The position numbers were made by a program, and so were the translations under genes. The notes below the pieces were generated by a model. That model had not been told where the DNA came from, searched no databases, and worked only from the letters and a program-made list of their open reading frames with translations. A DNA stretch of 64,000 nucleotides from Limnobacter alexandrii (GTDB lineage Bacteria; Pseudomonadota; Gammaproteobacteria; Burkholderiales; Burkholderiaceae_B), in contig NZ_SWKN01000006.1 in assembly GCF_005871185.1 (NCBI RefSeq), positions 646,014-710,013 of the forward strand. The letters are read 5' to 3'. Shown here one piece after another: positions 37,002 to 56,510 of this stretch (position 1 is its first letter; the number at the start of each line of letters is the position of its first letter).

Positions 37002-37290
37002 CTTGTCGGCAGCCGATACTTTGCCATCTTGGGCTATTGATTTGTTGAAGGGCCTTGTGATCAAGAAAATGATGCTTCGCCAAGATTCCGACGCATTGCT
37101 GTTGTGTGGTTTTCTGCTTGCTTTGGGTCAAAAAGACGATCAGCTTGATATTCTCTTTTCAGTCGCCAGACTCAACAAGGGTGAGCCACTGAGTGCAGAA
37201 TCCAAACAGCGGTTCGCTGTACAAATGCCCAAAGATGTATCCGAGATGATGCAGGCCCGATGCTTGCATCTCAGTTCGAGGTCCTCATGA
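36991..37290 (+). CDS. Small helical T3SS protein in the SctY position
   Basis: The 99-residue protein is predicted all-helical, with a TPR-like run SDALLLCGFLLALGQKDDQ in the middle. It overlaps the preceding gene by 11 bases and its stop overlaps the sctV start (ATGA). A small TPR-like chaperone next to sctV is what YscY is in Yersinia, where it binds YscX and SctV. I cannot confirm homology by eye. Alternatively it could be a chaperone for the translocators, none of which has another visible chaperone in this window. Confidence 0.5.
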   Translation: MSNNLSAADTLPSWAIDLLKGLVIKKMMLRQDSDALLLCGFLLALGQKDDQLDILFSVARLNKGEPLSAESKQRFAVQMPKDVSEMMQARCLHLSSRSS

Positions 37291-39377
37291 AAAGCTCTGT
37301 GGATGTGGCTAATTTAACCCTTGGCCGTTTTGCCCAACGAGGTGAGTTGGTCACTGCAGTCATGCTGCTGGCCATTGTGCTGGTCATGATTTTGCCAATA
37401 CCTACGCTGGTTCTCGACGTGTTGATCGGTTTCAGCATTTCTGTATCTGCCCTGCTGCTGATCATCGCGATCTACTTGCCATCACCTCTGGCCTTCTCTT
37501 CCTTCCCATCGGTACTGCTGTTTACCACACTGCTTCGTTTGGCCATTTCAGTTTCCACCACACGACAAATTTTGCTCGAAGCAGACGGTGGTCACGTCAT
37601 TGATGTTTTTGGTGGATTTGTTGCAGGCGGTAACCTGGTTGTCGGGATGGTCATTTTTTTCATCATCACTGTGGTGAACTTTTTAGTAGTGACCAAAGGC
37701 AGTGAGCGTGTTGCTGAGGTGGCAGCCCGCTTTACGCTTGACGGAATGCCCGGAAAACAAATGTCTATTGACAGCGATCTCAGGGCTGGCTTGATTGATC
37801 AACGCGAAGCCAAGCGTCGCCGAACGGTTCTTGAAAAAGAAAGTCAGCTGTTCGGCGCTATGGACGGCGCTATGAAGTTCGTTAAAGGCGACGCAATAGC
37901 CGGTATTGTCATTATTTTTGTGAATTTGCTGGGTGGGCTCACTGTCGGCGTACTTCAACACGATATGAGCTTCTCCGAGGCGGGTAGGGTATTTTCCATT
38001 CTGTCTATTGGTGATGGTTTGGTCGCCCAGATTCCATCCTTGCTGGTCTCTGTTGCGGCAGGCATGACAATCACCCGTGTTTCCCAGTCAGATGATACGG
38101 TGTCTAGTCTGGGTCGTGACTTGGTAACGCAGTTGGCTGGTCAGCCAAAAGCAACAATTACGGCAGGACTTTTAATTGCCGTGCTTGGTTTGATTCCCGG
38201 CATGCCCTTTGGTGTATTTGGGTTGATCGCAGCGGTGTTGGTCGGATTTTCATGGTTACAGCTCCGACAGAGTAACCGTCCTGAAGAGGACAACGATGCG
38301 CCGCGCCTCCAGGATCAGGCTGATCTTGGACCAATGACTGCAAATCAAGATATTCATGACCTCGATGGTTTTACCCAGTTCAAGGCGATACATATTGACC
38401 TGGTGGGTTTTGATTCAGATGATTTGATTGCTGTTTATTCAAAGGCAGCAAGGCAAGCCAGGAATAATCTCATCTCTTCTTTGGGGGTTGCACTGCCCTA
38501 TTTTTCAACCCGAGTGGTGAATTCTACAGAGCCTTGTCGGATTGATTTATATCTTTATAACGTACCAACCTTTAGTCATTTGGTAAGCCCACAGCTTTTA
38601 TGTGTACGCGAGGCTTCTTCTCGTCTTACAGCGCTGCAACTTGATTTCGAGCGCGAAAAAGATCCGATTACAGGCTTTGAGCGATGCTGGGTTGATCGAT
38701 CCGATTCCAGGTCCTTGCTTGATTTGGGTCTAACTGTGTGGGATGACAGTACAGTATTCGTTCAGCGGGTTGAAGACACATTGAGAAAGAATATTCATAT
38801 GCTTTTTGGTTTGCAGGAGGTGTCGCAGATCATGACGGCCTTGCAGTCTGATCAGCCCGAGTTACTTAAAGAGCTTGAGCGGATGATTCCTGTCAGTCGA
38901 GTGGCAGAAGTAATGCAGCGCATCGTTTCTGAAAACATTTCCATCCGAAATATGAGAAGTATTTTGCAAACTTTGATCGAGTGGGCACCAAAAGAACGCG
39001 AGGTGATCATGCTCGTTGAGCAGGTAAGGGTGGGTCTGCGGCATCAAATTTGTCATCAACTTGCACGCAACGGTGTCTTGTACGCAATTTTACTGGATGA
39101 GAGTTACGAAGAATCAATCCGAATGGCAGTGCGTCAAACCTCTTCCGGGAATTTCCTGTCGCTCGATCCGGTGACCAGTGAGGACTTTCTTCAAAAGGTA
39201 GGCAAGGCAGTCGAGAATACTCAGGATGTTGCAGCGCCAGTGTTAGTTGTGCCACTTGATATTCGCCGTTATATCCGGAAGTTGGTTGAAAAAGACCACT
39301 TCAATTTGTCGGTCATGTCATTTAATGAGGTGTTGCCTGAACTTTCAGTCCAGACTGTGTCACTAATAGAGGAGTAG
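37287..39377 (+). CDS. sctV: T3SS export-gate protein SctV
   Basis: The 696-residue inner-membrane protein forms the nonameric export gate. The N-terminal half has about eight helices with the conserved cytosolic FHIPEP-type loop (GTKGSERVAEVAARFTLDGMPGKQM spans it; only its start and end are needed for recognition). The C-terminal cytosolic domain (about 350-696) makes the substrate-binding ring. ATG 37287 overlaps the previous stop and has GAGG upstream, so it is preferred to 37260. It is the most conserved marker of the locus. Confidence 0.97.
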   Translation: MKSSVDVANLTLGRFAQRGELVTAVMLLAIVLVMILPIPTLVLDVLIGFSISVSALLLIIAIYLPSPLAFSSFPSVLLFTTLLRLAISVSTTRQILLEADGGHVIDVFGGFVAGGNLVVGMVIFFIITVVNFLVVTKGSERVAEVAARFTLDGMPGKQMSIDSDLRAGLIDQREAKRRRTVLEKESQLFGAMDGAMKFVKGDAIAGIVIIFVNLLGGLTVGVLQHDMSFSEAGRVFSILSIGDGLVAQIPSLLVSVAAGMTITRVSQSDDTVSSLGRDLVTQLAGQPKATITAGLLIAVLGLIPGMPFGVFGLIAAVLVGFSWLQLRQSNRPEEDNDAPRLQDQADLGPMTANQDIHDLDGFTQFKAIHIDLVGFDSDDLIAVYSKAARQARNNLISSLGVALPYFSTRVVNSTEPCRIDLYLYNVPTFSHLVSPQLLCVREASSRLTALQLDFEREKDPITGFERCWVDRSDSRSLLDLGLTVWDDSTVFVQRVEDTLRKNIHMLFGLQEVSQIMTALQSDQPELLKELERMIPVSRVAEVMQRIVSENISIRNMRSILQTLIEWAPKEREVIMLVEQVRVGLRHQICHQLARNGVLYAILLDESYEESIRMAVRQTSSGNFLSLDPVTSEDFLQKVGKAVENTQDVAAPVLVVPLDIRRYIRKLVEKDHFNLSVMSFNEVLPELSVQTVSLIEE

Positions 39378-39399
39378 AAAGGAATTCTGGAGCTATAAA

Positions 39400-40422: not shown

Positions 40423-40430
40423 GCAACAAT

Positions 40431-41783
40431 ATGACCCCATCCGACCTCACATTTGCGCATGAAGCTCAGGTACGACAGGCCCTCGATGCCTTGATATTGT
40501 TTCAGACGCAGTCCAGCGTCAGCCGTGTCACCGGTTTGATTATCGAAACAGAAATGCCTGAATGCCAGTTGGGTCAACTTTGTCGGCTTGAAACACCTGG
40601 GCGTTCTCATGAAATTCTTGCTGAAGTTGTCGGGTTTACCGAGGGTGCTGTCCAACTGGCTGCGTTGGAAGACTGTACCGGTTTGTCTACCAAGACACGG
40701 ATCACCCCTTATCGCCAGCAGCACACACTGATTGTTGGTGATTGCTTACTCGGGTGTGTGCTGGATGGTTATGGTCGAGACTATCAGAGTCGCCGATTCA
40801 TTATTCCGCCAGATGAGTCTGGGACGTCTCAAGTCAATGTACTGAGCAATCAGCAAAGCGCGCTGGATCGTCCTCCAATCAAGGAAGTGGTTCCAACAGG
40901 GGTTAGGGCAATTGATTCAGCACTGACAATTGGCAAGGGCCAGCGGTTGGGGATATTCGCGCCTGCGGGTTGTGGCAAAACCACCTTGCTTGCAAGTCTT
41001 GCTCGTCAGATGCAGGCAGATGTCATCGTGCTGGCTTTGATCGGAGAACGCGGTCGGGAGTTGAACGAGTTTCTTGAACGCGAGCTATCAGCAAGTTATA
41101 GAAGCAAGTGCGTGGTGGTGTGCGCCACATCCGACAAAACCAGCATGGAGCGAGCGCGGGCGGCCCATACCGCAAGCGCCATTGCCCAAGCTTTTTGTGA
41201 TGCCGGTAAAGACGTTGTTCTCATGGTTGATTCTCTTACTCGATTTGCACGTGCATTTCGGGAGCTCGGTCTCGCAAAAGGAGAGTCACCTGCACGTAGC
41301 GGCTTCCCTCCCTCGGTATTTGCAGAGCTTCCAAAGCTGATTGAGAGAGCCGGGATGAGCAAGTCAGGAAGCATCACAGCCCTATATACGGTTTTGATGG
41401 AAGATGGTGATGGTCAATCCGATGTGATTGCGGAAGAAGCTCGCTCTCTTCTGGATGGTCATATTGTATTGAGTCGTACATTGTCTGAACGAGGGCACTT
41501 TCCGGCAATTGATGTTGTTCAAAGTCTCTCGCGAGTAATGACTCATGTCGTCGATCCGTCGCATGCAAAACAAGCCGCCAATATCCGGAAATGGCTGGCC
41601 TTGTTAAATGAAGTGGAGCTACTGGTTCGTCTAAATGAATACGAAAAAGGCAGTGATGTCGAAGTCGACCTTGCCCTAAGCAAAAAGCAAGAAATTATTG
41701 ATTTTCTCGTACAAGACTCAAAAACACCTTCTGATTGGACTGCGACGCAAGCCGCGCTAGAAAAAATTTCCATGGGGGTGTAA
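40431..41783 (+). CDS. sctN: T3SS ATPase SctN
   Basis: The 450-residue F1-type ATPase unfolds substrates and detaches chaperones at the base of the apparatus. Walker A is APAGCGKTT with K183, followed by LIGERGRE and the ATPase signature region DSLTRFARAFRELGLAKGE, given here as two separate landmarks. The DCCC-like N-terminal beta-barrel and C-terminal helical domain are also present. It is clearly a SctN and not the flagellar FliI on neighbourhood: no flagellar gene is present, and sctO to sctU follow. The stop overlaps the sctO start (TAATG). Confidence 0.95.
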   Translation: MTPSDLTFAHEAQVRQALDALILFQTQSSVSRVTGLIIETEMPECQLGQLCRLETPGRSHEILAEVVGFTEGAVQLAALEDCTGLSTKTRITPYRQQHTLIVGDCLLGCVLDGYGRDYQSRRFIIPPDESGTSQVNVLSNQQSALDRPPIKEVVPTGVRAIDSALTIGKGQRLGIFAPAGCGKTTLLASLARQMQADVIVLALIGERGRELNEFLERELSASYRSKCVVVCATSDKTSMERARAAHTASAIAQAFCDAGKDVVLMVDSLTRFARAFRELGLAKGESPARSGFPPSVFAELPKLIERAGMSKSGSITALYTVLMEDGDGQSDVIAEEARSLLDGHIVLSRTLSERGHFPAIDVVQSLSRVMTHVVDPSHAKQAANIRKWLALLNEVELLVRLNEYEKGSDVEVDLALSKKQEIIDFLVQDSKTPSDWTATQAALEKISMGV

Positions 41784-42223: not shown

Positions 42224-42275
42224 CTTAATCCTTCAGGGGGAATTTCAAGTCGTTTACCAATGTCATAGTGAAGCC

Positions 42276-44857: not shown

Positions 44858-45657
44858 ACGCGATTGTTGACGCAAAGCAGTGGGGAATTTTTTTTCAGGA
44901 GTTCACCCGAATACTTCTTTTGTATGCACCTCGCGCCTTCTTGGCATTTGCTTTCGTTCCACTACTGTCTACCAAAATTGTTTCTACTTACGTAAGAAAT
45001 GCGCTGGTGGTTTCCATGGTGATCATTCCTGTTTCCCTGCAATATGATCAGGTGGTGTCAATTGAGTACTCGGTCGCCAACTATATAACCTTGATCATCA
45101 AGGAATGTATTCTCGGGGTCTTCATTGGGCTCCTGATGGCTCTCCCATTCTGGGTCATGGACATGATGGGAACCATGATTGACAACGTACGGGGAGCCAC
45201 ATTTGCGTCAATTTTCAATCCCGGTACGCAAAGTGAAGATTTGGTATTCAGCCAGTTTCTGATTCTCGCCGGTGGGGTGTTTATTCTTCAGGCGGGTTAT
45301 TTTGCCTTCATGTCCAAATGGCTTATTTCCACCTATTTCGTATTTCCAGTTTGGTCTATGTCTCCCGAATCGACTCTTTACAGTGTGGGTGAGTTAATTC
45401 GTGCTTTCTCCCATGTGTTGCTGATTGCAGTCTTGGTAGTCAGCCCGGTAGTTTTTGCTGTGCTGATTGTTGATTTCATTTTCGCACTGCTAAGTGCCTA
45501 TGTGCCCAATTTACAGGTTTACAACTTGATTTTTGGATTGAAATCTGTGGTTGCGATTCTAATTGTGGCTTTGTATGCCTACTTTCTTTTTCATTATTCC
45601 GATGAGTATTTTCGTGTACACACTGACTTTATGGCTCGCTTGATTCCGAGTCGCTGA
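44854..45657 (+). CDS. sctT: T3SS export apparatus protein SctT
   Basis: The 267-residue FliR/SctT-family protein has about six helices and provides the single SctT subunit of the core export gate. Typical segments are APRAFLAFAFVPLLS, IGLLMALPFWVMDMMGTMID and VVSPVVFAVLIVDFIFALLSAYVPNLQVYNL, which spans the conserved PNLQVY motif. It overlaps sctS by 4 bases and ends 16 bases before sctU. Confidence 0.95.
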   Translation: MNAIVDAKQWGIFFQEFTRILLLYAPRAFLAFAFVPLLSTKIVSTYVRNALVVSMVIIPVSLQYDQVVSIEYSVANYITLIIKECILGVFIGLLMALPFWVMDMMGTMIDNVRGATFASIFNPGTQSEDLVFSQFLILAGGVFILQAGYFAFMSKWLISTYFVFPVWSMSPESTLYSVGELIRAFSHVLLIAVLVVSPVVFAVLIVDFIFALLSAYVPNLQVYNLIFGLKSVVAILIVALYAYFLFHYSDEYFRVHTDFMARLIPSR

Positions 45658-45673
45658 CGGTGGAGTCTGATCA

Positions 45674-46759
45674 ATGAGTGACAACAAAACCGAAGAGCCA
45701 ACGCAAAAAAAACTTGATGACGCGCGCAAGAAAGGTCAGGTTGCGTCTTCAAAAGACGTTGTTCACGTATGGGTTCTTTTCTTCGGACTCTCGGTTGTTC
45801 TAAGTGATCTTTTCAATACTGCGGAGCGAATTCTTGCTGTGTTCGACAGGGCTTTTGATTTGATGAATGCGAAAGGTCCCCGTTTTCTTGGTGCCATGGC
45901 AACTGAGACCTTGAAAGATATTACTTTGATTAGCTTGCCTTATCTGGTCATCGCCATCCTTTCAATCTTGCTAGGCACGTTTTTTCAAACCCGTTTCCTG
46001 GTTAGCTTTGAATCAATCAAACCCTCATTCAAGAAGTTTGATGTGGTTAGTAATGTAAAGAATATGTTTAATGCAAAATCCCTTGTACAAATTATTTTGG
46101 GGATTTTCAAAATCGTTGTTGTAGGTACTGTGAGTATTCTTGTATTCAAGTCTTACGCTAACGACTTTATGCACATGCCCGCGTTGACAGTTGATCAGCT
46201 CTGGCCTTTCATCGCTCAGGTTTTGCGGATTGTCTTTTACAGTAGTTTTGTGATGTTTGTTGTTCTTGCTCTCATGGATTATGTCATTGTGCTTTGGAAT
46301 CATATGAAGCAAATGCGAATGTCCAAACAGGAGGTGAAGCAAGAATACAAAGATCAAGAAGGTGATCCGTACATTAAATCACAGCGCAAACAGGAAGGTC
46401 GCCGTTTGATCGACTCAAATCCTGCCCACCTGGTAAGGCGTAGCGCAGCGGTGGTGACAAACCCAACACATATCGCAATATGTTTGGCTTACGATCCGCA
46501 AGAACACAGCGTACCTTTCGTTTTGGCTATACGAGATGGAATTGAGGCTCAAGACATGATGAAACTTGCTCGTGAAATGGGCGTTCCGGTCATTCGCCAC
46601 ATACCATTTGCAAGAGGTATTTATCGAAATGGGCTAGAAATGAGTTACGTACCAAGTGAGTACATCAAGCTGTCTGCGCTGATCATCCGATCAGTAATGA
46701 AATGGACGAAACTCAGCGAGACAGAAAAGAACTCCCGTTCAGATTGGGTAATTGAATAG
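45674..46759 (+). CDS. sctU: T3SS autocleaving switch protein SctU
   Basis: The 361-residue protein has an N-terminal DDARKKGQVASSKD amphipathic start, four transmembrane helices (about 28-225) and a cytosolic domain. The self-cleavage motif NPTH is at residues 263-266, the same numbers as in Yersinia YscU, with cleavage expected after N263. SctU switches export from needle to translocators. It is the last gene of the plus-strand apparatus operon, and no terminator is seen in the 27 bases before the convergent sctC stop. Confidence 0.96.
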   Translation: MSDNKTEEPTQKKLDDARKKGQVASSKDVVHVWVLFFGLSVVLSDLFNTAERILAVFDRAFDLMNAKGPRFLGAMATETLKDITLISLPYLVIAILSILLGTFFQTRFLVSFESIKPSFKKFDVVSNVKNMFNAKSLVQIILGIFKIVVVGTVSILVFKSYANDFMHMPALTVDQLWPFIAQVLRIVFYSSFVMFVVLALMDYVIVLWNHMKQMRMSKQEVKQEYKDQEGDPYIKSQRKQEGRRLIDSNPAHLVRRSAAVVTNPTHIAICLAYDPQEHSVPFVLAIRDGIEAQDMMKLAREMGVPVIRHIPFARGIYRNGLEMSYVPSEYIKLSALIIRSVMKWTKLSETEKNSRSDWVIE

Positions 46760-46786
46760 AACTTAATTCGGCAACGCTGTTTATTT

Positions 46787-48529
46787 TTATCTGGATGATG
46801 CGTCCAGCTCTCGGCTCATTTTCAGTGATTGTGAGTCGGGTGAAGTTATAGAAAAGCTGACTGGCGAATTTTTTGGGGTGTGCTTGATAGGTGCAGCGGG
46901 TACTCTGAGAGATGGTGCGAAAAGAAGCTTGTCACTAGATTGACTATGTGCATTCTCAACAATTCGGGGCGTAATCATGAACAGACGCTTGCGTTGAATA
47001 TTGTTTTTGAATTCACTGGTGAATGCTTTGCCTATCAACGGAATGCTAGACAGAAACGGAACCCTTGAAGATGTTTGATTGCTGCTTTCAACGTTATAGC
47101 CACCAATCAATAGCGATTGCCCTTCCCGTATTACAGCTTGTGTGCTGATATTTGTTTTTCGAACCAAGGGCAAATCGTTGGTTGAATTAATCGTATCTAA
47201 GGTACCGTCTTCAATATCCAGAATCAACTGAATCCGCTTGTTTCCGTTTTCTTCAATGACTCTGGGGGTTACCCTCAGCGTGGTCCCCGCTGTTACTGGA
47301 ACGAGATTGGCTACCCGCTCCCCGCTGACCCTGCTGAAGAAGGTTTCTGTCAGGTCGAGAAAAGCGCCAAGATTGTTCACTGTAAGAATACGAGGGCTGG
47401 CCAGTACCTTGGCTTCACCATCCTGTTCCAATGCTCGAATCCGGGCATTGAATCCCTGGATATTGTTGACGACAGCAGAACCGTTTTTACCTAGTCCCAC
47501 ATCTGTACCGTTGCCCGGCTGTGTGCTGGCGTTAAAAGAGAAATATTCACTTCCGTATGCCAGGGCGCTACTGAACTCATCAAGTCGATTGAGCTCCACT
47601 TCCATGATAGATGCTTCAATTTCAATCAGCGCACTCGGAGTATCCAGCTCTGCCAATAGTTTTTCATAGTAAGTGAACCTGCTTGGATGATCACGAATAA
47701 TTATTGCATTCAGTCTTGGATCGGATTCAACAAGGGCTGTACCGGAAATTCGGGATCCAGAATTTTTTCCTTTATCGTTACTCATGTCAGCTGAGATGAC
47801 TCCGTCTTGTGAGTCAGCCATACTTAATGCGCCCGGCACCGGGCTGGCCATGAGGGGAACCGCTTTCTCATTTTCGTGTGTTGTTTTACCCGATCCGATG
47901 GTACGTTGCAAAATACTGGCTACGCCGGGGGTGATAATTTCCCTGTCTCTGTATCTAACAACCCGATCTTCAACTGCTGCGTGTTTTAATCGATAGATGA
48001 AGGTCTGGGTTTGCAAGCCACTACCCAATTGCTGGAGCTGTTTGCCGATCGATTCTACATAGGCACTTGGGCCAGAGACGATGACTGTATTGTTGTTGTC
48101 GATGCTGCCCCAACCAAATTTTGGATCCAGCAGTTTTACTTCCGTGAGTGCTTTTTTCAGCGATTCAGCTGCGCCGTCGGGTACTGAGAATGCGCGCACC
48201 ACAAAATCGGCTGAGTCCGCAATATGCAGAGCACTGCCTTGTACAAACCATGAAAACCCGTGACTGGATGCCAGTTCATCTAGAAAACGTACCGCGGTGT
48301 CGCCTTCAATACGTCCATGAACAGGCTTTCGAAGTGGTGTATGCATATTCACTTGAAGTCCAAACCGCTTCGCGAAAGTCTGGATGATCTGCTGGACGCT
48401 TTCCCCTTCGCCCATATATTTATAAGGTCTTTGCAACGGCGCATTACTTTTTTCAATACCTTCTGCGAATGACGTTATCGCAATCAAGGAGAGAATTAGT
48501 GTTGCCAGGGCTTTACGGTTGGTTTTCAC
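46787..48529 (-). CDS. sctC: T3SS outer-membrane secretin SctC
   Basis: The 580-residue protein starts with a signal peptide (MKTNRKALATLILSLIAITSF, cleavage near AEG). It has N0 and N1 periplasmic domains (about 45-190), an N3-like domain with ESDPRLNAIIIRDHPSR (about 265-335) and a secretin beta-barrel domain (about 340-530) with VPVTAGTTLRVTPRVIEE and VPFLSSIPLIGKAF. A polar tail follows that may bind a pilotin, but no pilotin gene is seen here. It is the last gene of the minus-strand operon. Confidence 0.94.
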   Translation of the reverse strand: MKTNRKALATLILSLIAITSFAEGIEKSNAPLQRPYKYMGEGESVQQIIQTFAKRFGLQVNMHTPLRKPVHGRIEGDTAVRFLDELASSHGFSWFVQGSALHIADSADFVVRAFSVPDGAAESLKKALTEVKLLDPKFGWGSIDNNNTVIVSGPSAYVESIGKQLQQLGSGLQTQTFIYRLKHAAVEDRVVRYRDREIITPGVASILQRTIGSGKTTHENEKAVPLMASPVPGALSMADSQDGVISADMSNDKGKNSGSRISGTALVESDPRLNAIIIRDHPSRFTYYEKLLAELDTPSALIEIEASIMEVELNRLDEFSSALAYGSEYFSFNASTQPGNGTDVGLGKNGSAVVNNIQGFNARIRALEQDGEAKVLASPRILTVNNLGAFLDLTETFFSRVSGERVANLVPVTAGTTLRVTPRVIEENGNKRIQLILDIEDGTLDTINSTNDLPLVRKTNISTQAVIREGQSLLIGGYNVESSNQTSSRVPFLSSIPLIGKAFTSEFKNNIQRKRLFMITPRIVENAHSQSSDKLLFAPSLRVPAAPIKHTPKNSPVSFSITSPDSQSLKMSRELDASSR

Positions 48530-48543
48530 GCGACTGCCCTAAT

Positions 48544-48774
48544 TCAGGCTGACTTCTGAAGAATGCCCTTCAAGGCATCGCTAAGCTCTTTCACGATACT
48601 GCTTTGCACCTGAACACTGAGTGACCATTTGTTCAAATTCATCTGCATCTCCAGTAGGTTCTCTGTGTTTGTTGATCCCTTGCTCAAAGTGTTTTGAAGC
48701 CGGCTTTCATTGGTTCGAATAACCTGGCCTACCTTGGCTTCAATACCATCCAGACCGAATGCGGAATTAATCAT
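48544..48774 (-). CDS. sctF: T3SS needle subunit SctF
   Basis: The 76-residue protein has the needle-subunit size and a C-terminal helix (NKWSLSVQVQSS..VKELSDALKGILQKSA). It lines up well with the end of YscF (NKW...SS.IV...KDL..GILQKFP) as I remember it. SctF polymerises into the extracellular needle. It lies between sctC and sctL with its own ribosome site; high expression would be expected. The needle position beside the secretin differs from Ysc order, where sctF lies between sctE and sctG. Confidence 0.85.
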   Translation of the reverse strand: MINSAFGLDGIEAKVGQVIRTNESRLQNTLSKGSTNTENLLEMQMNLNKWSLSVQVQSSIVKELSDALKGILQKSA

Positions 48775-48786
48775 GTCTCACTCCTA

Positions 48787-49452
48787 TTAAAATTGCGGTT
48801 GATCAAATAAAGTTTCTGGGTTGTCTGATTTTTGCTGAAGTATGTGGGCAATACTTTCCACTGCAAAGGAATAGTCAATCATCGTGCCCCCACCCCTCTT
48901 GGCCTTTAGGCGAACACGCCCCGATTCCAAGGAGTTACTGGTTTCAATTGCAATATGATCTAAGTGCAGATGAGAAGTCTTCAGGTTCCGAATATAGTCC
49001 TCGACATATTGAAGATCTGCTGTGTTGCATTCTATTGCGTAATAAACACCTTCAATAAGGCTGCTTTTAACTTGATTTAAAAGGCTCTCGATTTGAGATT
49101 TCAGGGGCAATGAAACAGTTAATTTTTTCCATGCAATCTCTATAATTGCCGCACAGTGTTCAATAATTCTTTGCTCATACATCTGTTGTTGGACTGTCAA
49201 TTTTTCAAGGTTGAAACTAAGTTCTTCAAGGCAATCAGCCTGTGTTTTTACCACCGTCTGCCTGCAGATCATTTCAATTTCCTGCTGGGCGTCCTCTAGC
49301 ATTTGGACACAAGTTCCACGAGTGGACTCAAGCTGATTTACCGCTGTTTGAAGTAACTCGAGTTCGACTGCGGAGTAAGCTGACTTCTTTATCAGTTGTG
49401 GTGGCAGTTCAATGATCCGTAATCCGATAGGATTCAATTTAGAAGTGCTCAT
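48787..49452 (-). CDS. sctL: T3SS stator protein SctL
   Basis: The 221-residue soluble protein has a long central coiled coil (about 25-110) and a C-terminal globular domain with VRLKAKRGGGTMIDYS, as in the SctL/FliH family. It anchors and restrains the SctN ATPase and links it to SctQ. It overlaps sctK by 14 bases. The call uses size, domain pattern and position after sctK. Confidence 0.82.
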   Translation of the reverse strand: MSTSKLNPIGLRIIELPPQLIKKSAYSAVELELLQTAVNQLESTRGTCVQMLEDAQQEIEMICRQTVVKTQADCLEELSFNLEKLTVQQQMYEQRIIEHCAAIIEIAWKKLTVSLPLKSQIESLLNQVKSSLIEGVYYAIECNTADLQYVEDYIRNLKTSHLHLDHIAIETSNSLESGRVRLKAKRGGGTMIDYSFAVESIAHILQQKSDNPETLFDQPQF

Positions 49453-50011
49453 TTTCTATTTCTCTGATGGTCCCGAGTAGCCGAATTGGGTCCACTTCTT
49501 TGATGTCTGGCGGTAAATCGAGAATGAGGTTGGCAAGTCTGGAAGAATAGGTTTTAAGCGCCCTGGCTAACAGTTCTCTTCCTAGCAGAGTTGGATTGTT
49601 ACCAAAACATGCAGGCGAACAAAGCCAGTCGGCCTGTAGGGGTTTTGTCCGGATTAAAGCAAGGGCACTGTATAAATAATCCTGCTCTTTTAGATACCGT
49701 GACTGCCACATTGTGTGGACGCTGATAGCAGGGAGTGCATTCCCCAATCGCATAAGTCCTAAGATGAAAATAGTACGAGTGTTGTTGGGTTGCGCCTCGT
49801 TGTAAGAGTCTAGTGCGTAGTTCTCCCAAATTTGTCTGCACGCTCTGATTGAGAGGTCGCTGCAATTTGGAGACCATTCATTCTGTTGCGCACTACGCAC
49901 GTGAAAATGGAAATAAGGCCATTTCCGGTTACCTGGGTGGACAGGAAGCTCCAGTTTCCGCGGTACAAGTGCGTGCAAAACTGATGATGCAGTTCCGTTC
50001 AACGCGTCCAT
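49439..50011 (-). CDS. sctK: T3SS sorting-platform adaptor SctK
   Basis: The 190-residue protein is mainly helical and lies exactly between sctJ and sctL, as in the Ysc order J-K-L. SctK (YscK/OrgA/MxiK) links the SctQ pods to the inner-membrane ring. Conservation in this family is weak and I assign it by position, length and the OrgA-like LGRELLARALKTYSSRLANLIL segment, read as helix only. The start at 50011 overlaps the sctJ end by 13 bases. Confidence 0.7.
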   Translation of the reverse strand: MDALNGTASSVLHALVPRKLELPVHPGNRKWPYFHFHVRSAQQNEWSPNCSDLSIRACRQIWENYALDSYNEAQPNNTRTIFILGLMRLGNALPAISVHTMWQSRYLKEQDYLYSALALIRTKPLQADWLCSPACFGNNPTLLGRELLARALKTYSSRLANLILDLPPDIKEVDPIRLLGTIREIENEHF

Positions 50012-50868
50012 CCTTTGACCTTCCTCGTCAAAAATGCGAGACGGTTAATCCATGATCTTGGAAATGGCACTGAGGCGCCTTTGATTGATTCGGGTGTTTC
50101 CACATCGGGGTTGCCTTTTAGCAGTGCCCAGTATTGAAATATCAGATAGGAAAACGAAACTATCAGGATGATTACTAATGAAATCAGCGTAAAAAGTAGC
50201 CAACCTAGTTTTGTTGCTGAGTTTTTTTCGACTATAAAACCACCGAGACGCTCAAATTCAACAGACCTTGCGTCGCTTTCCTGAGACGGGATCATGACCA
50301 CACTGATGTTCTCCAAAGAGCTTGAGTCAAGTCCAGGAATGCTATTTTTGACCATCTGTTTAATGCGGGTAATGATCGATGTGAGATCGACCCTAGGCGA
50401 ATGCTTGATGAATACAGCCGCACTGGAAGGCTTGATGGGTTCTCCCGGCGCGGTACGTTCTGGTAGAACCACATGTACTCTCGCATTGATTACGCCATCA
50501 ATAAAAGAGAGCGTGTTTTCAAGTTCCTGAGAAAGCGCGAATATATAGCGTGCCCTTTCTTCCATGGGTGAGGAGATAAGTCCGTCTTTCTTGAAGACAT
50601 CACCTAGCCGGTCATGCTGCCGTCGCGGCAACCCCTCATTGTTCAGATGATTCAGAGATATGGATATTTGATCTTGAGGAACAAGAATCTGCAGACCTGT
50701 TTTTGTCGTGATTTTGGTGGCGTCAATGCCCTTGTCCAGAAGTGTTGACAGTACCTTATTGGCTTCGCGTTCTTCCAGGCCGTTTAAGAGTTCTACCCTG
50801 CTGGTGCAGCCAAGCAACATTGCTGTCAAAAGTCCCACCCAAATAAGCTGCATAAAGGATCTCAACAT
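49999..50868 (-). CDS. sctJ: T3SS inner-ring lipoprotein SctJ
   Basis: The 289-residue lipoprotein has a lipobox LLGC with Cys21. Two periplasmic ring domains follow: YscJ-type VELLNGLEEREANKVLS..LLDKGIDATK and INARVHVVLPERTAPGEP, each quoted in part. A C-terminal transmembrane helix spans about 225-250 with a short cytosolic tail. With SctD it forms the inner-membrane double ring. It is well conserved and leaves no doubt that the minus-strand genes belong to the same apparatus. Confidence 0.95.
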   Translation of the reverse strand: MLRSFMQLIWVGLLTAMLLGCTSRVELLNGLEEREANKVLSTLLDKGIDATKITTKTGLQILVPQDQISISLNHLNNEGLPRRQHDRLGDVFKKDGLISSPMEERARYIFALSQELENTLSFIDGVINARVHVVLPERTAPGEPIKPSSAAVFIKHSPRVDLTSIITRIKQMVKNSIPGLDSSSLENISVVMIPSQESDARSVEFERLGGFIVEKNSATKLGWLLFTLISLVIILIVSFSYLIFQYWALLKGNPDVETPESIKGASVPFPRSWINRLAFLTRKVKGWTR

Positions 50869-50879
50869 TACTCTGCCTG

Positions 50880-51269
50880 TTATTGAAGATGGGTTAACTG
50901 ATCCAGGTTCTTGGTAGATTTACTGACCATCTCCCCCATCATCTGTGTTTCTATGCTGAGTTGAGTCAATTGCAGTTGCATCTGCAAAAGGTCGGCCGTG
51001 TTGTTTGTGTTCGCGTGATTCTTAGCCAATTCCCCCATCGCATCTACCCTGTTTTTCAAGTGATCAGATGCATTGTCGAGCGATGCGGACAGATTGGTAA
51101 ATACGCCAAACTGGTTGCCTGTAATCGCATCAGTACTCAATTTTTCCGGTTCAGCAAATAGTGTGGCCTGAAAGTCATGAATATCTACCTGAGAAGGTGG
51201 GACCACGGTGGCCTGAAGACCCCAGTCGGCAGGGCCCAATACAGGGGGTGGAGTCGCTATAAGAGTCAC
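50880..51269 (-). CDS. sctI: T3SS inner rod protein SctI
   Basis: The 129-residue protein ends in the amphipathic rod helix LLQMQLQLTQLSIETQM..MVSKSTKNLDQLTHLQ, which matches the SctI (YscI/PrgJ) C-terminus in length and pattern. The N-terminal 80 residues are variable. SctI joins the export gate to the needle. It is the first gene of the minus-strand operon I-J-K-L-F-C, and the 199-base gap upstream should hold its promoter and that of the divergent secreted-protein block. Confidence 0.82.
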   Translation of the reverse strand: MTLIATPPPVLGPADWGLQATVVPPSQVDIHDFQATLFAEPEKLSTDAITGNQFGVFTNLSASLDNASDHLKNRVDAMGELAKNHANTNNTADLLQMQLQLTQLSIETQMMGEMVSKSTKNLDQLTHLQ

Positions 51270-51468
51270 TTTTGCCTCGCTTTTCTAGTATTTGTTTACT
51301 CTTTATCTAAGTGTCCCCACCTGCTTGACAGTTCCTCGCTCATATTGCGAATTTTTTTTTCGAACAAGTGAACTTCCGGGTGCTTGTTGTTTACCTAAAA
51401 AATACGAGGAGCAATAAAGGTTGAACTGAAGTTCGCTTCTTGTCTTTCACCTAATCAAAGGGGGATTT
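51270..51468. promoter_or_regulatory. Divergent promoter region between sctI and the secreted-protein block
   Basis: This 199-base gap is AT-rich and separates two divergent transcripts, so both promoters should lie here. GGGGG before the plus-strand start at 51469 serves as ribosome site (AAAGGGGGATTT). I could not place -35/-10 boxes or a HrpL, HrpB or sigma-54 element with any confidence. Confidence 0.4.
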
Positions 51469-52146
51469 ATGGCAGTTCAAGAGTTAAGTACCAGTTCACA
51501 CCTGGTTGAATCGCAGGCATATGCCTTTGAGTTCAATCAGGCAAGTCAATCGCTGCGTATCACGGAAAAGGGGAATTCGAATCTTTCTTTTTTGGTATGG
51601 GGCGACCCTCATCAGACTGTGCAGGTTAAAAATCAGCAGGGTGCATGGGAAAACCATGGAAGCCTACGTCATGACGATTTTTATACAAATCGCTCTTATG
51701 TTCTTGAGGACGGCACAAAGGTTGAAATGAAAACTGTGCCTGGACAGGGGGCATTTGCAGACGGTAAGGCGACTTTCACCAACGAGGTAATCATCACAAG
51801 TCCAGATGGAAAATTTGCCGTTCATGTGACTGGACTTTATCGAGATCATGAATTGGCGCAGGGACGCTCTGGCGAAATGAGAGTGAGGATTCTTCTGGAC
51901 GAAACCCAGCAGGCGAGAAAACTTGATGCTGATCACTCAGACGGATGGACTTTTTTACTGAATGACGGCGCTCTCGATTTGTTCATTCCTGAAAAATACG
52001 CGAGTGTTTCGGAACACCTCAAAGCAATTGGGGGGGGCTCCCTTATGCCTGGAATAGACCTGGTTGATTTGCAAGTTGGTATGCAGGATCAATACGCAAA
52101 TACAGAGCAAAACAACCAAAAGAACAAGGAGGCAAACAACCGTTGA
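51469..52146 (+). CDS. DUF1521/MIIA-like T3SS-associated protein with GDPH motif
   Basis: The 225-residue protein has no signal peptide. Residues about 15-190 resemble the DUF1521 / metal-ion-inducible autocleavage (MIIA) domain of rhizobial effector NopE. The family's cleavage motif GD-PH is present at G45-D46-P47-H48 (VWGDPHQT), then YVLEDGTKVEMKT, TFTNEVIITSPDG and a VHVTGL strand. In NopE, Ca2+ triggers cleavage between D and P. The last 35 residues are Gln/Asn-rich. Its place first in the block before the translocators suggests secretion by this T3SS. VWD domains also have GDPH, so this needs a profile search; I judge MIIA more likely from the following strands. Confidence 0.65.
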   Translation: MAVQELSTSSHLVESQAYAFEFNQASQSLRITEKGNSNLSFLVWGDPHQTVQVKNQQGAWENHGSLRHDDFYTNRSYVLEDGTKVEMKTVPGQGAFADGKATFTNEVIITSPDGKFAVHVTGLYRDHELAQGRSGEMRVRILLDETQQARKLDADHSDGWTFLLNDGALDLFIPEKYASVSEHLKAIGGGSLMPGIDLVDLQVGMQDQYANTEQNNQKNKEANNR

Positions 52147-52220
52147 AGCAGGGCAGTTGCAAGTGAGTTTAATAACGTTTCACTTAATTGATGAACCAAT
52201 TTTAAAGGATGGAATTGAAC

Positions 52221-52817
52221 ATGGCCAATATTGATACAAACTTCAAAACTGGAAGTTACCAGCATGAACTGGCAAGCCTGACCCTATCAACTACCTCGGG
52301 ATTTCGATCTGGAGACATTTTTGATCAATTCGCAATTTTCTTTGCGCAGCGATATGGCGAGGTGAAGAATGAAGCGGGCGCTTTGATGGAAAAAGCAGAA
52401 GCTCACCGTCGATTGAATCAGGCCAAGAAGGATGCGTTGAATTCACTGACAGCCACCGGTGAGAAAGGAAGGTTTGAGACAAGTAAGGAGGCAGCTGCAC
52501 CGGCATTGACTGTACTGGATACTATTATCAGCGACAAAAGCGGTCGTTTCTCTAAAGAACAAATCGACATGGCGACGAGTCTAAAAAGTTCCATCACTGA
52601 TGACAGCATTTTGGGGGCCTCGGAAAAAGCGAATTTCGATACCCTGGTGAATAGATACTACAGCGTTGATGGTAACGGCGAAGCCGTGATGGATGATGCA
52701 ATTCTCAACATGATGATCCAATCCATCATGGGCGATATCTCCAACCTTTCCAATGCGATGAGTGGCACCGTGAAGAAGAAGGACGACACTGAAGGCGCTG
52801 TGATCAGAAATTTCTAA
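52221..52817 (+). CDS. Unknown helical protein, likely T3SS-exported
   Basis: I do not recognise this 198-residue protein. It has a Ser/Thr-rich start, a helical middle (LMEKAEAHRRLNQAKKDALN), a Gly/Asp segment with YYSVDGNGEAVMDDAI that resembles an EF-hand-like loop, and a C-terminal amphipathic helix (IMGDISNLSNAMSGTVKK). ATG 52221 is taken over 52209 because AAAGGA is spaced for it. It lies between the MIIA-like protein and the translocators, and an intrinsic terminator follows its stop. A needle-tip or filament (EspA/SseB-type) role would suit the position, but no homology is claimed. Confidence 0.6.
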   Translation: MANIDTNFKTGSYQHELASLTLSTTSGFRSGDIFDQFAIFFAQRYGEVKNEAGALMEKAEAHRRLNQAKKDALNSLTATGEKGRFETSKEAAAPALTVLDTIISDKSGRFSKEQIDMATSLKSSITDDSILGASEKANFDTLVNRYYSVDGNGEAVMDDAILNMMIQSIMGDISNLSNAMSGTVKKKDDTEGAVIRNF

Positions 52818-52834
52818 AAACGCATGATGATGAG

Positions 52835-52860
52835 CCCGGCTTCGTGCCGGGTTTCTTTTT
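52835..52860 (+). terminator. Intrinsic terminator inside the secreted-protein operon
   Basis: CCCGGC (52835-52840) pairs with GCCGGG (52846-52851) around a 5-nt loop, followed by TTTCTTTTT. It ends only 10 bases before the sctE start and overlaps its ribosome site region. It would stop most transcripts after the unknown gene at 52221 and let a fraction read through into sctE and sctB. Confidence 0.75.
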
Positions 52861-52869
52861 GGAGTTGCT

Positions 52870-54066
52870 ATGGTTGATTCAATACCAAGTCAAATTGTTC
52901 CTGCTGGAACGTCAGTTGTACAGCCTCCCACTTTGGTTTCTGCTGGTGAAAGTCCACTGGATTTCTTGGCGGAATATCTGTTTGGCGCACCCCGCGGTGA
53001 AGCTGCTCCTTCGCATTTGGCGGCTCTACCTGCAGATGAAAAGTCGCAGCAAGCGATGGCGGCTGCACGTGAATTTCTTGACACGATTTTGGAAGATGAT
53101 GAGTTCGCACATCTCGTGTTATCCGCGATTCTGGGTCGCTCTGCCGCTGACAAGGCACTTGAGGCAGCCAATACAACAAGCGGCGTAAAAAAATCAGTTG
53201 AATTGAATCAACTTCGGGAAATCGTAAAACGAGCAAAAGCCGAGGCAAAGGCACAGGCTGGTGGAATTCTAGCGAAAATTTTCAAGTGGATTGCGATTAT
53301 TATTGCTGCAATTGGCGCTGCATTTGCCGTGATTGCAAGTGGGGGCGCTGCCACACCGGTAGTAGCCTGCCTTGTTGCAGGACTCGTATTGGCTCTTTGG
53401 GATATGGGGGCTGAAATTGCAAGTGAAATTACTGGAGACCCAGCCAAGGGCTTCGCTTGGGCAATGGGCGAAATGATGGCCGGTGTGGTTAAGGCATTTG
53501 GCGGCTCTGAAGAGGAAGTTGAAAAGGCTCGGGATTTGGGTGGAATGATCCTGGCGATTGTCATCCAAACCACTATTGGCCTGGTAGGTGTGACTGCCTT
53601 AATGAAAGGCTTAAGTAAGGGTGCAGAAAATGCCGCCCGTGCAGGGGTTGCTGCAAATGCGGTAGATGATGCAACAAAAGCTGGCGCCAATGCGGGTGCT
53701 AATGGTGCAAGTGCAGGGGCCAATACAACTGATGAGTCTATCCAGAAAATAACCGAACTCGTTAGGCGGATTATGGTTACTACGGAGGTGGCAGAATCGG
53801 TATCCATGATGGGCAACGGAGCAAGCACTATTCATTTGGCTGTGTTGCAAGAGAAAGTTGCGCAAGCGCAGGCAGATGAGTTGGAGGCCAATGCACTCTT
53901 GAAAATGATCCTAGATTTCTTTGAAACAAAGAAGGAGGAGTTGGAGGAGGAGATCAAGAAACTTCAAGAAGGTATTACAGGTGCTGGGAAGGTGAAGGAA
54001 TCCAAGGATTCTGCTGTTGCAGAAATCATTGAAAACTGGTCACGGCCTGCATTCATCGCTGCATGA
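52870..54066 (+). CDS. sctE: T3SS major translocator-like protein SctE
   Basis: The 398-residue protein has the YopB/SipB/EspD layout. A polar N-terminus leads into two hydrophobic hairpin regions: about 136-182 (KIFKWIAIIIAAIGAAFAV and a second Val/Ala/Leu-rich stretch) and about 222-246 (GMILAIVIQTTIGLVGVTAL). Between them lies the amphipathic SEITGDPAKGFAWAMGEMM. The C-terminus is a coiled coil (about 325-380, EEEIKKLQEG). Such proteins insert into the host membrane to form the pore. The Gly/Ala/Asn-rich stretch about 258-282 is low complexity. Similarity is structural rather than residue by residue. Confidence 0.78.
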   Translation: MVDSIPSQIVPAGTSVVQPPTLVSAGESPLDFLAEYLFGAPRGEAAPSHLAALPADEKSQQAMAAAREFLDTILEDDEFAHLVLSAILGRSAADKALEAANTTSGVKKSVELNQLREIVKRAKAEAKAQAGGILAKIFKWIAIIIAAIGAAFAVIASGGAATPVVACLVAGLVLALWDMGAEIASEITGDPAKGFAWAMGEMMAGVVKAFGGSEEEVEKARDLGGMILAIVIQTTIGLVGVTALMKGLSKGAENAARAGVAANAVDDATKAGANAGANGASAGANTTDESIQKITELVRRIMVTTEVAESVSMMGNGASTIHLAVLQEKVAQAQADELEANALLKMILDFFETKKEELEEEIKKLQEGITGAGKVKESKDSAVAEIIENWSRPAFIAA

Positions 54067-54079
54067 TAAGGGGGACGAA

Positions 54080-54742
54080 ATGAGTAACAGTGTTGTAACT
54101 GGAAACAGTGAGTTCTTTGCATGGCAGAAGGCCGATGTTGAGCGTCAATTGAATGGCTTGTTGCATGGTGACTTCTGGAGTGAATTGCGTTTGTTGTTTG
54201 CTAAATCTGCAGCCACTGAAAGTATACACGGGACGCAGTCCAGGCTAAAGGGCGGAGAAATGGCAGCCGACAGGTTCAATCTCGGAATGAAGCAGGCCGA
54301 CGAGATTCGAAGCGCTGCCGCAAAGAGGTTAGCAGGCGCGATTGTAAGCGCGGTGATTGAAGCTGGAGCTGGTGTCGGGGGTATCATGCATGCGCGATCA
54401 ATCGTGAAAGATGCCAAGGATTTTTCAGCTTCACTGGTAGGCAAGAAACCAGACGAAATTGCAAGGCTTACACAAGAGCGTGGTGTGAAAGACCAGGCCA
54501 AATTGATGATGCTTAACTTCGCATGGCAGAACCTTGCTCCCGCTCTTGGTAAGCTGGCTCAGGCCCCCGCTGAATATTCTGCATCGATCGATGATGCACA
54601 AGGAAAAGAGTTACAGGCGGCAGAGCAGTTCCTCGATTCTGTGTTGGACGAATTGAGCAAAATGGAAAGCCATGCACAAGACACAGCTCGTTCAAGTAGT
54701 TCGGCACTGGGAGAGGTTCGCTTGCCTCAAATTCAAATTTAA
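54080..54742 (+). CDS. sctB: T3SS minor translocator-like protein SctB
   Basis: The 220-residue protein follows sctE after 13 bases behind AAGGGGGA. The longer reading from 54017 lies inside sctE. It has a helical N-terminus, one moderately hydrophobic Ala/Gly-rich helix (about 83-104, AIVSAVIEAGAGVGGI) and a C-terminal helical region with heptads (about 175-210). This agrees with SctB proteins (YopD/SipC/EspB), which pair with SctE in the host-membrane pore. Call mainly by position and layout. No translocator chaperone (SycD/LcrH type) is seen nearby. Confidence 0.7.
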   Translation: MSNSVVTGNSEFFAWQKADVERQLNGLLHGDFWSELRLLFAKSAATESIHGTQSRLKGGEMAADRFNLGMKQADEIRSAAAKRLAGAIVSAVIEAGAGVGGIMHARSIVKDAKDFSASLVGKKPDEIARLTQERGVKDQAKLMMLNFAWQNLAPALGKLAQAPAEYSASIDDAQGKELQAAEQFLDSVLDELSKMESHAQDTARSSSSALGEVRLPQIQI

Positions 54743-54830: not shown

Positions 54831-56510
54831 TTAGATGGGCAGACTGTCCGTGGGCAGCGCGCTGGTCAGTGCATCCAGTGGGCTTGCACCAGAGGAGATC
54901 GGCAGGCTGGAAGGATCCAGCAGGCTGGTCAGGGAGTCCAGAGGCGTTCCTGTGGAGGGGAAGCTTGGCAAGCCACCACCAGCGCCGCCACCTGCTGCCA
55001 GATCGGTCAGGATGCTGGGGTCGAGCAGCTCGGTCACCATGTCCAGGGGGGTACCTGTGGAAGGAATACCGGGCAGTCCACCTGCACCGCCACCAGCCAA
55101 GGCATCAGTCAGGATGCTGGGGTCGAGCAGTTCGGTAACCATGTCCAGGGGGGTGCCTGTGGAAGGAATGCCGGGCAGTCCGCCTGCACCGCCACCCGCC
55201 AAGGCATCAGTCAGGATGCTGGGGTCGAGCAGGGCTGTAACCTGATCCAAGGGTGTGCCGGTTTCAGGGAAGCTTGGCAAACCGCCGCCGCCACCGCCGG
55301 CCAACGCGTCAGTGACTGGGCCGAGTACTGCGTCCAAAGGTGTACCTGTGGGGCCACCTGCGCCACCACCGTCACCGCCTGGCAGGGGCAGGCCACCTGA
55401 CAAAGCTGCGATCAGAGGATCGGTTACCGGGGTCAGTGCGTCGAAAGCCTGATTCAGGCCATCAGCCACAGGCTGTGACACCATGGGCAATGCGTCGGTG
55501 GCTGTGGCCAAGCCGTCAAATAAGGGAGCTGCTGCATCAAATCCTTGAGTCAAGCCGTCGTTCAAGGGGGCAAGCGCGGGGTCAAGCTGACCAACCACTT
55601 GTGCCAGGCCGTCGGCCAGTTGTGGTGTCACCATGCTCAGCCCACCACCCAGTTGCTCTGCAACTACGCGCAGGTTTACTGGCAAGGTGTCGGCAGCGGC
55701 TGTTACCAAGCCATCTTCGTTGCCAGCCAATACGTCAACCACCGGGGAAAGCGCTTCTTCAACCGCTTCGGTAATTGGTGTTACGTTTTCATCCAGAGAG
55801 TCTGTCACTGGTGCAAGGCCGGTCAGTGCATCGCTCAAGGTGTCGTTCACGGGCGTAAGTGCGGGCTCGAGTGCATCGGTAATTGGTGCTGTTTCTTCCA
55901 GCACTGGGTCGAGAGCCTCAGTCACAGGTGCCAAGGCACCGACGGGGGCATCCACAACTGTTGTTACAGGTGAAAGTGCGTCCAGGGTTTCTTCAAGTGC
56001 TGGTGAAGCTGGGCCTGCTGCATCGGTCACTGGCTCGAGTGCGCCTGCGGCTGCTTCGCCAGATCCGCCACCTGAAGCACCACCACCTGCGCCGCCGTCG
56101 TTGTCATCGCTGCCTAGCACGAATGCTGCACCAGCAGCAGCGGCCAGTGGGCCAGCCAAACCGCCTGCAGCCAAACCTGCGCCGAACAGGCCGAACATGC
56201 CGCCTGCGCCGGTTACTGCAACAGTTTCGCCTTCGGTCAATAATTCGAATTCGCCTTCGGCTACTTCAAATTCCGCACCGTTTTCGCCTTCTTTCAATGT
56301 GGCCACGGCGTTGGATTGCAAAATTCCTTCGGTGGCTGTTTGACCGTCTGCTCCGGGGAACTCGATGTAGGCAGAGCCTTCGGCACTGGTGGTGACAGTG
56401 TCACCAGCAGAAATGATGTCGCCTTCTTTAAGAAGGACCTGTTCTCCGTCGGGACGGGTTACAGAAACCTCGCCCAACACGCTTTTGATGATTCCAGTGA
56501 TATTAGCCAC
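54831..56510 (-). CDS. Compact retention-module protein with PLD/Gly-rich repeats
   Basis: The 559 residues begin with a retention module (about 1-100) of the type found at the N-terminus of giant type I-secreted adhesins such as LapA and BapA: GIIKSVLGEVSVTRPDGE, LKEGDIISAGDTV, EFPGADGQTATEG. A Gly/Ala-rich hydrophobic segment follows (about 100-135), then an acidic Gly linker. Residues 155-390 carry repeats of the form (A/S)PVT(D/E)(A/S)LDP. Four to five 34-residue repeats (GTPLDMVTELLDPSILTDALAGG type) make up the end. There is no Sec signal and no obvious RTX or type I secretion tail. It has about a tenth of the length of usual members. The gene is convergent with sctB. Confidence 0.8.
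   Translation of the reverse strand: MANITGIIKSVLGEVSVTRPDGEQVLLKEGDIISAGDTVTTSAEGSAYIEFPGADGQTATEGILQSNAVATLKEGENGAEFEVAEGEFELLTEGETVAVTGAGGMFGLFGAGLAAGGLAGPLAAAAGAAFVLGSDDNDGGAGGGASGGGSGEAAAGALEPVTDAAGPASPALEETLDALSPVTTVVDAPVGALAPVTEALDPVLEETAPITDALEPALTPVNDTLSDALTGLAPVTDSLDENVTPITEAVEEALSPVVDVLAGNEDGLVTAAADTLPVNLRVVAEQLGGGLSMVTPQLADGLAQVVGQLDPALAPLNDGLTQGFDAAAPLFDGLATATDALPMVSQPVADGLNQAFDALTPVTDPLIAALSGGLPLPGGDGGGAGGPTGTPLDAVLGPVTDALAGGGGGGLPSFPETGTPLDQVTALLDPSILTDALAGGGAGGLPGIPSTGTPLDMVTELLDPSILTDALAGGGAGGLPGIPSTGTPLDMVTELLDPSILTDLAAGGGAGGGLPSFPSTGTPLDSLTSLLDPSSLPISSGASPLDALTSALPTDSLPI
54931..55341 (-). repeat. 102-bp in-frame tandem repeats
   Basis: Four consecutive units encode 34-residue repeats in the retention-module protein. 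Phase markers ACCATGTCC at 55036 and 55138 and the diverged ACCTGATCC at 55240 are exactly 102 bases apart; the first unit is 105 bases through one extra Gly codon. The two central units are nearly identical, a sign of recent duplication. Copy number may vary between strains. Confidence 0.9.

What the first reader, a model, noticed from the sequence alone, without database searches (positions are those of the whole stretch)
51469..52146. Putative self-cleaving (MIIA/DUF1521) protein linked to the T3SS
Seen: GDPH at residues 45-48, followed by VLEDGTKVEMKT and VHVTGL segments that look like DUF1521. Known: NopE-type effectors cleave themselves between Asp and Pro of GD-PHVD when Ca2+ is present. 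Here the fifth residue is Gln in place of Val, and the gene opens the secreted-protein block. A calcium-triggered self-cleaving substrate upstream of translocators would be a new context.
Basis: partly seen in the sequence, partly recalled or inferred. Interest (0 to 1): 0.75.

Follow-up and report, generated by a model that had tools for sequence, protein, structure and literature searches.

The report
Divergent self-cleaving-type secreted protein gene
A gene inside a bacterial injection-machine cluster encodes a far-diverged relative of proteins that cut themselves when they meet calcium; it keeps the cutting site but has a rebuilt loop beside it, so whether and how it still cuts is open.

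Summary
The 225-aa protein at 51469-52146 (+) carries WGDPH at 44-48. A profile of 80 DUF1521 (MIIA) domains built without it finds it at E=2.3e-20 among 326 window ORFs (next 0.85): 67.4 bits, against at most 25.3 for 2000 shuffles that keep WGDPH. Pfam alone just misses its cut-off (22.7 of 23.6 bits). It is the first + strand gene after SctI, ahead of a SseC-type translocator, with the GC of the T3SS island.

T3SS-linked DUF1521 is not a new context: VIC_001052 of Vibrio coralliilyticus is one (PMC6506597). Here 32 of 80 fetched DUF1521 loci hold type III export genes, 28 of them not flagellar, and one same-genus genome has a canonical copy in its T3SS cluster. The change is larger than Val to Gln: the loop from GDPH to the invariant Phe has 22 residues against 10-14 in 80 relatives, and the usual V-[D/E/N] after GDPH is gone. 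Self-cleavage is plausible; NopE-like Ca2+ gating is doubtful. Kinship of DUF1521 with VWD is only a lead.

The parts
51469..52146 (+). divergent DUF1521 (MIIA-type) protein, 225 aa, 25.0 kDa
51598..51612 (+). codons for WGDPH (residues 44-48); expected break between D46 and P47
   Evidence: cleavage itself inferred from the family
51613..51678 (+). codons for the rebuilt 22-residue loop (residues 49-70) between GDPH and F71
50880..51269 (-). SctI inner rod (Pfam T3SS_basalb_I above cut-off), divergent neighbour
52209..52817 (+). 202-aa ORF without a family match, next gene downstream
52870..54066 (+). SctE translocator, SseC family (Pfam above cut-off)
54017..54742 (+). weak SctB-like ORF (17.6 bits, cut-off 37)
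48544..48774 (-). SctF needle (Pfam above cut-off)
46787..48529 (-). SctC secretin (NCBIfam above cut-off)
37260..39377 (+). SctV export gate (NCBIfam above cut-off)
40431..41783 (+). SctN ATPase (strong match; subfamily cut-off met, equivalog cut-off not)

Best explanation
The gene encodes a DUF1521-domain protein that is most likely exported by the neighbouring type III secretion system. Shown: membership in the DUF1521 superfamily, an intact WGDPH site, and a place in the T3SS gene cluster. Inferred: it leaves the cell unfolded through the injectisome, folds outside, and the bond D46-P47 breaks by itself to give pieces of about 5.1 and 19.9 kDa. Inferred from the rebuilt loop after GDPH: the calcium switch known from NopE1 and VIC_001052 is weakened, altered or replaced, so cleavage may be slow, may need another ion, or may go on without one. 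My split: DUF1521 superfamily 0.97; T3SS substrate 0.75; self-cleaving under some condition 0.55; gated by low-micromolar Ca2+ as VIC_001052 is, 0.3.
For: Profile of 80 relatives: 67.4 bits, E=2.3e-20; shuffles at most 25.3 bits; hhalign with P0001 removed from the profile, 98.8%, E=1.2e-16, 140 columns. The one plasmid record found by tblastn is an annotated DUF1521 protein, the next annotated gene to a secretin-family gene of a T3SS cluster. Kept: W44-H48, D70, F71, L79, D81-K84, G122, D153, D158, G159. Surroundings: SctV, R, C, J above NCBIfam cut-offs; S, F, I, E above Pfam cut-offs; N, T, U strong but below equivalog cut-offs; W, D, Q, B weak. Family link: 28 of 80 loci have non-flagellar type III export genes in the fetched flank (20 classed as injectisome by the script, 2 mixed, 6 undecided); SctC over the cut-off in 20 of 34 non-Chloroflexi genomes checked, against 2 of 199 phylum genomes apart from the window's own. 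G014 of the same genus has a canonical DUF1521 gene in its T3SS cluster. Loop: 22 residues against 10-14; next residue V68/I7/M4/L1 of 80 against Q; the one after D/E/N in 72 of 80 against T.
Against: No experiment. No close relative: 0 of 59 other genomes; an 8-row profile that includes this protein rang only in the own genome among 369 of the class. So nothing shows that GDPH is under selection here, and it could be a remnant. Longest end branch of the tree (2.68, median 0.12). No tool here tests a T3SS signal. DUF1521 is no fixed part of the T3SS: of 11 genus genomes with SctC over the cut-off only this one and G014 have it, and 14 of 34 non-Chloroflexi genomes with DUF1521 had no SctC over the cut-off. 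The loop still holds three acids, equal to the family median of 3 (range 0-7), so Ca2+ binding is not excluded; the Ca2+ sites of VIC_001052 are not mapped (PMC6506597); L085, T3SS-linked, has no acid in this loop.
Confidence: 0.5

Rival explanations
1. It works just like NopE1 and VIC_001052: unfolded without calcium, folds on binding Ca2+ and cuts between D46 and P47; the lengthened loop makes no difference.
For: The scissile motif, W44, the DGTK block and several conserved Asp residues are kept; the loop's acid count equals the family median; the published Ca2+ sites are not assigned to this loop (PMC6506597).
Against: V-[D/E/N] after GDPH lost, loop nearly doubled, three positions with usual D/E/N are Gln 16, 24 and 57. 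Residues 18-180 have 23 acidic and 15 basic residues, against 31-38 acidic in six of eight relatives listed; two or three others (L098, L105, L085) are as little acidic.
Confidence: 0.25
2. GDPH is a remnant or is kept for folding only; the protein is a T3SS substrate that no longer cuts itself.
For: Very long branch, rebuilt loop right after the scissile bond, no relatives to show selection.
Against: W-G-D-P-H is intact in a protein with about a quarter identity to its family.
Confidence: 0.2
3. It is not exported but acts inside the cell, for example as a partner of the next gene products.
For: No secretion test; the next gene has no family match.
Against: NopE1 and NopE2 are T3SS-secreted (PMC6506597); the family goes with injectisomes.
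Confidence: 0.05
4. It is a VWD domain or another GDPH fold and only looks like DUF1521.
For: The DUF1521 profile meets FCGBP VWD repeats as its best PDB sequence hit (E=1.1e-5 for the whole chain); VWF and MUC5AC chains stand at ranks 46 and 50 of the Foldseek list for this protein.
Against: Pfam: DUF1521 and no VWD. hhalign: 12% to VWD, 98.8% to DUF1521. The two Foldseek matches are not significant (E 0.57 and 0.60, query TM 0.25 and 0.22).
Confidence: 0.03

Closest known systems
VIC_001052 of Vibrio coralliilyticus (MIIA domain, PMC6506597)
   Same: DUF1521 domain with GDPH; gene inside a T3SS cluster
   Different: 370 aa with a highly acidic domain and proven Ca2+-induced folding and cleavage; the window protein is little more than the domain, with a lengthened loop that lacks the usual residues after GDPH.
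NopE1 and NopE2 of Bradyrhizobium (T3SS-secreted, PMC6506597, PMC9185962)
   Same: DUF1521 domain with GDPH; T3SS link
   Different: published cleavage motif is GD-PHV (PMC9185962, passage); here GDPHQT. Not compared directly; the NopE-like rows used were L018, L036 and L029.
DUF1521 protein of Bosea vestrisii plasmid NZ_CP126308.1 (WP_284173160.1)
   Same: best tblastn match (33.9% over residues 43-147, E=2e-3), beside T3SS genes
   Different: canonical GDPHVDKDGDGKNDFDF loop and a long N-terminal region
Eukaryotic VWD domains with GDPH (FCGBP, MUC2; PMC10880436)
   Same: GDPH cleaved between Asp and Pro without a protease; the DUF1521 family shares a run like W-GDPH-x-DG-FDF-T-L with them
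   Different: no significant match for this protein; the match of the two families falls to 2% probability once GDPH is masked

Membership tests
DUF1521 / MIIA (PF07481) | whole-protein score at Pfam's curated cut-off | tested here: not met
   22.7 bits, cut-off 23.6, E=1.1e-4
DUF1521 / MIIA (PF07481) | significant match to a profile of family members | tested here: met
   67.4 bits, E=2.3e-20, profile of 80 relatives without it; shuffles at most 25.3 bits; hhalign 98.8%. The relatives were fetched by similarity to this protein.
DUF1521 / MIIA (PF07481) | GDPH cleavage site | tested here: met
   residues 45-48
DUF1521 / MIIA (PF07481) | hydrophobic residue then D/E/N after GDPH, loop of 10-14 residues to the invariant Phe | tested here: not met
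   Q-T and 22 residues
DUF1521 / MIIA (PF07481) | metal-induced folding and autocleavage | not testable with these tools
   needs purified protein
T3SS-secreted protein | gene in or with a T3SS cluster | tested here: met
T3SS-secreted protein | export that depends on the T3SS | not testable with these tools
   no signal predictor or secretome on hand
VWD domain (PF00094) | profile match | tested here: not met
   no VWD match at E<=1; 12% by hhalign
VWD domain (PF00094) | VWD fold | tested here: inconclusive
   Foldseek: nothing at E<=0.001 for either model; VWF and MUC5AC at ranks 46 and 50 of 726 for this protein; no VWD chain among the 50 of 617 shown for the canonical domain; VIA-align could not be run

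The most novel reading that the evidence does not exclude
DUF1521 and the eukaryotic VWD domain share descent and the same protease-free Asp-Pro cleavage, and the window protein is a T3SS-exported form in which that cleavage has been freed from the calcium switch by a new loop.
Probability: 0.12. Interest if true: 0.75.

Novelty: new variant of a known kind. Interest (0 to 1): 0.42.

Why it matters
DUF1521 proteins sense calcium by folding and then cut themselves. A natural member with an intact cutting site but a rebuilt neighbouring loop would show whether the cut and the calcium switch can be separated. The wider survey ties the family to type III export (injectisomes, and flagellar operons in some Anaerolineae), which suggests a role for its many members that lie away from such genes.

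Tried and rejected
A frameshift as the cause of the odd loop was rejected: the other two frames of that stretch give no canonical loop.

VWD: tested by Pfam, PDB sequence searches, hhalign with controls (87% with P0001 removed; 2.2% with GDPH masked in both; score 37.7 against at most 30.3 in 40 column shuffles that keep GDPH), a VWD search in 249 phylum genomes that rang nowhere, controls included, and so proves no absence, and Foldseek. Not established. Searches used A4, which holds P0001 as a row, so I rely.

A Pfam survey of 112 neighbour proteins from 19 of the 48 DUF1521 loci without type III genes nearby (112 of the 140 proteins listed) showed no common partner in the 25 of 160 families displayed; the top ones occur in 4 proteins each. 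Weak PF07481 hits L004, L010, L011, L021, L022 and L023 were not used as members; L004, L010 and L011 hold no GDPH ORF. That the G014 copy lies among translocators is not supported: four genes next to it match no Pfam family at E<=0.01. The promoter and terminator scan of 51200-52300 gave nothing above shuffles. The script labels also call L041 and L084 flagellar, from a FliA-like match alone; I do not count these. Organism: not named; probably the order of certain beta-proteobacteria, since G270 (same order) has a contig as long as the record of L105, an uncultured beta proteobacterium (35294 bases), with the same DUF1521 ORF length and the same T3SS scores.

Full report
What is there. The window holds one T3SS cluster from about 35260 to 54742. 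SctV, SctR, SctC and SctJ pass NCBIfam cut-offs; SctS, the needle SctF (48544-48774, -), SctI and the SseC-family SctE pass Pfam cut-offs; SctN, SctT and SctU match strongly but below their equivalog cut-offs; SctW, SctD, SctQ, SctB and an SctL-like ORF match weakly. ORFs at 36588, 36991, 41735, 42276, 49439 and 52209 have no significant match. The gene of the finding is the first on the + strand after SctI, followed by the unmatched 202-aa ORF and then SctE. Its GC (46.3%) is that of the island (46.6%), below the window (51.9%).

Is it DUF1521? Pfam alone is not enough: 22.7 bits against a cut-off of 23.6, while shuffled copies that keep WGDPH reach 25.3 bits with a related profile. The case rests on three other results. 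A profile of 80 DUF1521 domains without this protein gives 67.4 bits, E=2.3e-20, with the next of 326 window ORFs at 0.85. hhalign against 58 relatives without it gives 98.8% over 140 columns. The one plasmid record found by tblastn is an annotated DUF1521 protein (E=2e-3). A caution: the 80 relatives were fetched with patterns derived in part from this protein and confirmed by similarity to it; 93 of 190 stretches passed and 80 were kept. The patterns required W-GDPH or the L-x-DGTK block, so the invariance of these among the 80 is partly selected. All 59 members of A4, this protein included, match Pfam DUF1521 at E<=1.

What is different. In the 80 relatives the residue after GDPH is V (68), I (7), M (4) or L (1), the next is D (55), E (13), N (4) or another (8), and 10-14 residues lead to the invariant Phe. 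Here they are Q and T, and 22 residues lead to F71. Among 38 relatives thinned at 70% identity, positions with mostly D/N, E/D and D/E/N align to Q16, Q24 and Q57, while D70, F71, L79, D81-K84, G122, D153, D158 and G159 are kept. Against this reading: the loop's number of acids, three, is the family median (range 0-7), and L085, a T3SS-linked member from a Paraburkholderia MAG, has none. The protein has the longest end branch of the tree, 2.68 against a median of 0.12; its place is unsure.

Is the context new? No. PMC6506597 (parts 1-4 of 6 read) describes VIC_001052 as a MIIA protein in a T3SS gene cluster, with two Ca2+ sites of low-micromolar affinity, disorder without Ca2+, and no cleavage in D116A. 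Here 32 of 80 fetched loci hold a type III export gene in the fetched flank of at most 10 kb (the same number at a laxer limit). Four of these are flagellar operons of Anaerolineae. Of the other 28 the script classed 20 as injectisome, 2 as mixed and left 6 undecided; in 13 of the 28 the nearest such gene is within 1.6 kb. For 44 loci (43 of the 48 without such a gene, plus L100 with one SctU-like gene 7 kb away) I asked whether the genome has SctC over the cut-off: 20 of 34 non-Chloroflexi (19 of 33 without L100) and 0 of 10 Chloroflexi do, against 3 of 200 phylum genomes, the window's own among them; Fisher p=7e-18 for 20/34 against 2/199, overstated because many of these genomes are related. 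So 14 of 34 have DUF1521 but no SctC over the cut-off. Within the genus, SctC passes in 11 of 16 genomes, but DUF1521 is found only in this genome and in G014, plus one weak GDPH-less match in G002: it is no fixed part of the machine.

The same-genus loci. I fetched T3SS stretches of 10 other genus genomes. In five (G014, G010, G006, G008, G012) the T3SS lies beside the same repeat protein and acyl-CoA dehydrogenase genes as in the window, in G003 beside the carboxylase gene; in the other four this was not seen in the stretch held. Gene order differs and shared T3SS proteins are 24-49% identical, so the window T3SS looks like another lineage at the same site. In G014 a canonical DUF1521 gene (WGDPHVDLNNDG) ends the block that follows an SctI-like gene; the four genes between have no Pfam match.

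How it may work. Passages in PMC10602570 and PMC9185962 say that the Asp-Pro bond of GDPH is cut, that Asp to Asn or Ala stops NopE1 while Glu does not, and that a wild-type MIIA fusion was cleaved prematurely during production. For VWD domains PMC10880436 (passages and section 10) proposes, from simulation, attack of the Asp side chain on its own carbonyl, helped by a cis Gly-Asp bond. By analogy the bond D46-P47 here would give 5.1 and 19.9 kDa. AF2 gives a confident fold for a canonical domain (mean pLDDT 88.7) and a fair one for this protein (71.8), with nearly the same order of strands (one extra at 138-143 here); within residues 1-170 the block 61-70, in the lengthened loop, is the least certain (59).

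VWD. The DUF1521 profile picks FCGBP with its VWD repeats as its best PDB sequence (E=1.1e-5 for the chain, best single repeat 7.8). hhalign gives 94% with A4, which holds this protein, and 87% without it, above 40 column shuffles, but 2% with GDPH masked. Foldseek finds nothing at E<=0.001 for either model; VWF and MUC5AC stand at ranks 46 and 50 for this protein, no VWD chain among the 50 shown for the canonical one. The second aligner was not available. Common descent is a lead, not a result. In the listings of four paper searches (searches show 25 of 603 and 25 of 422 papers) I saw no title or abstract that joins DUF1521 or NopE with VWD; PMC10880436 has no word beginning with NopE or bacteri. 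Most subscription papers are not held.

Verdict. A real, far-diverged DUF1521 protein of a T3SS cluster with an intact scissile motif and a rebuilt loop. The context is known in kind; the loop is what is new.

Noticed in passing
L099 120-1055, L104 9629-10555, L108 5420-6364, L109 4007-4969: In four Anaerolineae-type Chloroflexi loci a DUF1521 gene with WGDPHVD stands about 1.6-1.7 kb ahead of MotB-FliM-FliN-FliP-FliQ-FliR-FlhB genes: a self-cleaving-type domain in a flagellar region. Other Chloroflexi loci checked show no flagellar gene nearby.
   Followed up: partly
L022 1183-2229: A proteobacterial protein with WGDPHF, a weak DUF1521 hit (E=0.0013), lies beside an FlhB-like reading frame.
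   Followed up: no
window 35260-54742 and L012, L130-L133, L135: Different T3SS lineages (24-49% identity, other gene order) seem to occupy the same chromosomal place in the genus.
   Followed up: partly
window 54831-56510 (-): Repeat-rich 559-aa protein with a weak match to a LapA-type retention module, found beside the T3SS in 5 of 10 other genus genomes fetched.
   Followed up: no
L054, L065, L079, L031, L038, L058, L091: DUF1521 genes in Acanthopleuribacter-type Acidobacteriota and in Endozoicomonadaceae-type genomes, several named after animal hosts, form their own branches.
   Followed up: no
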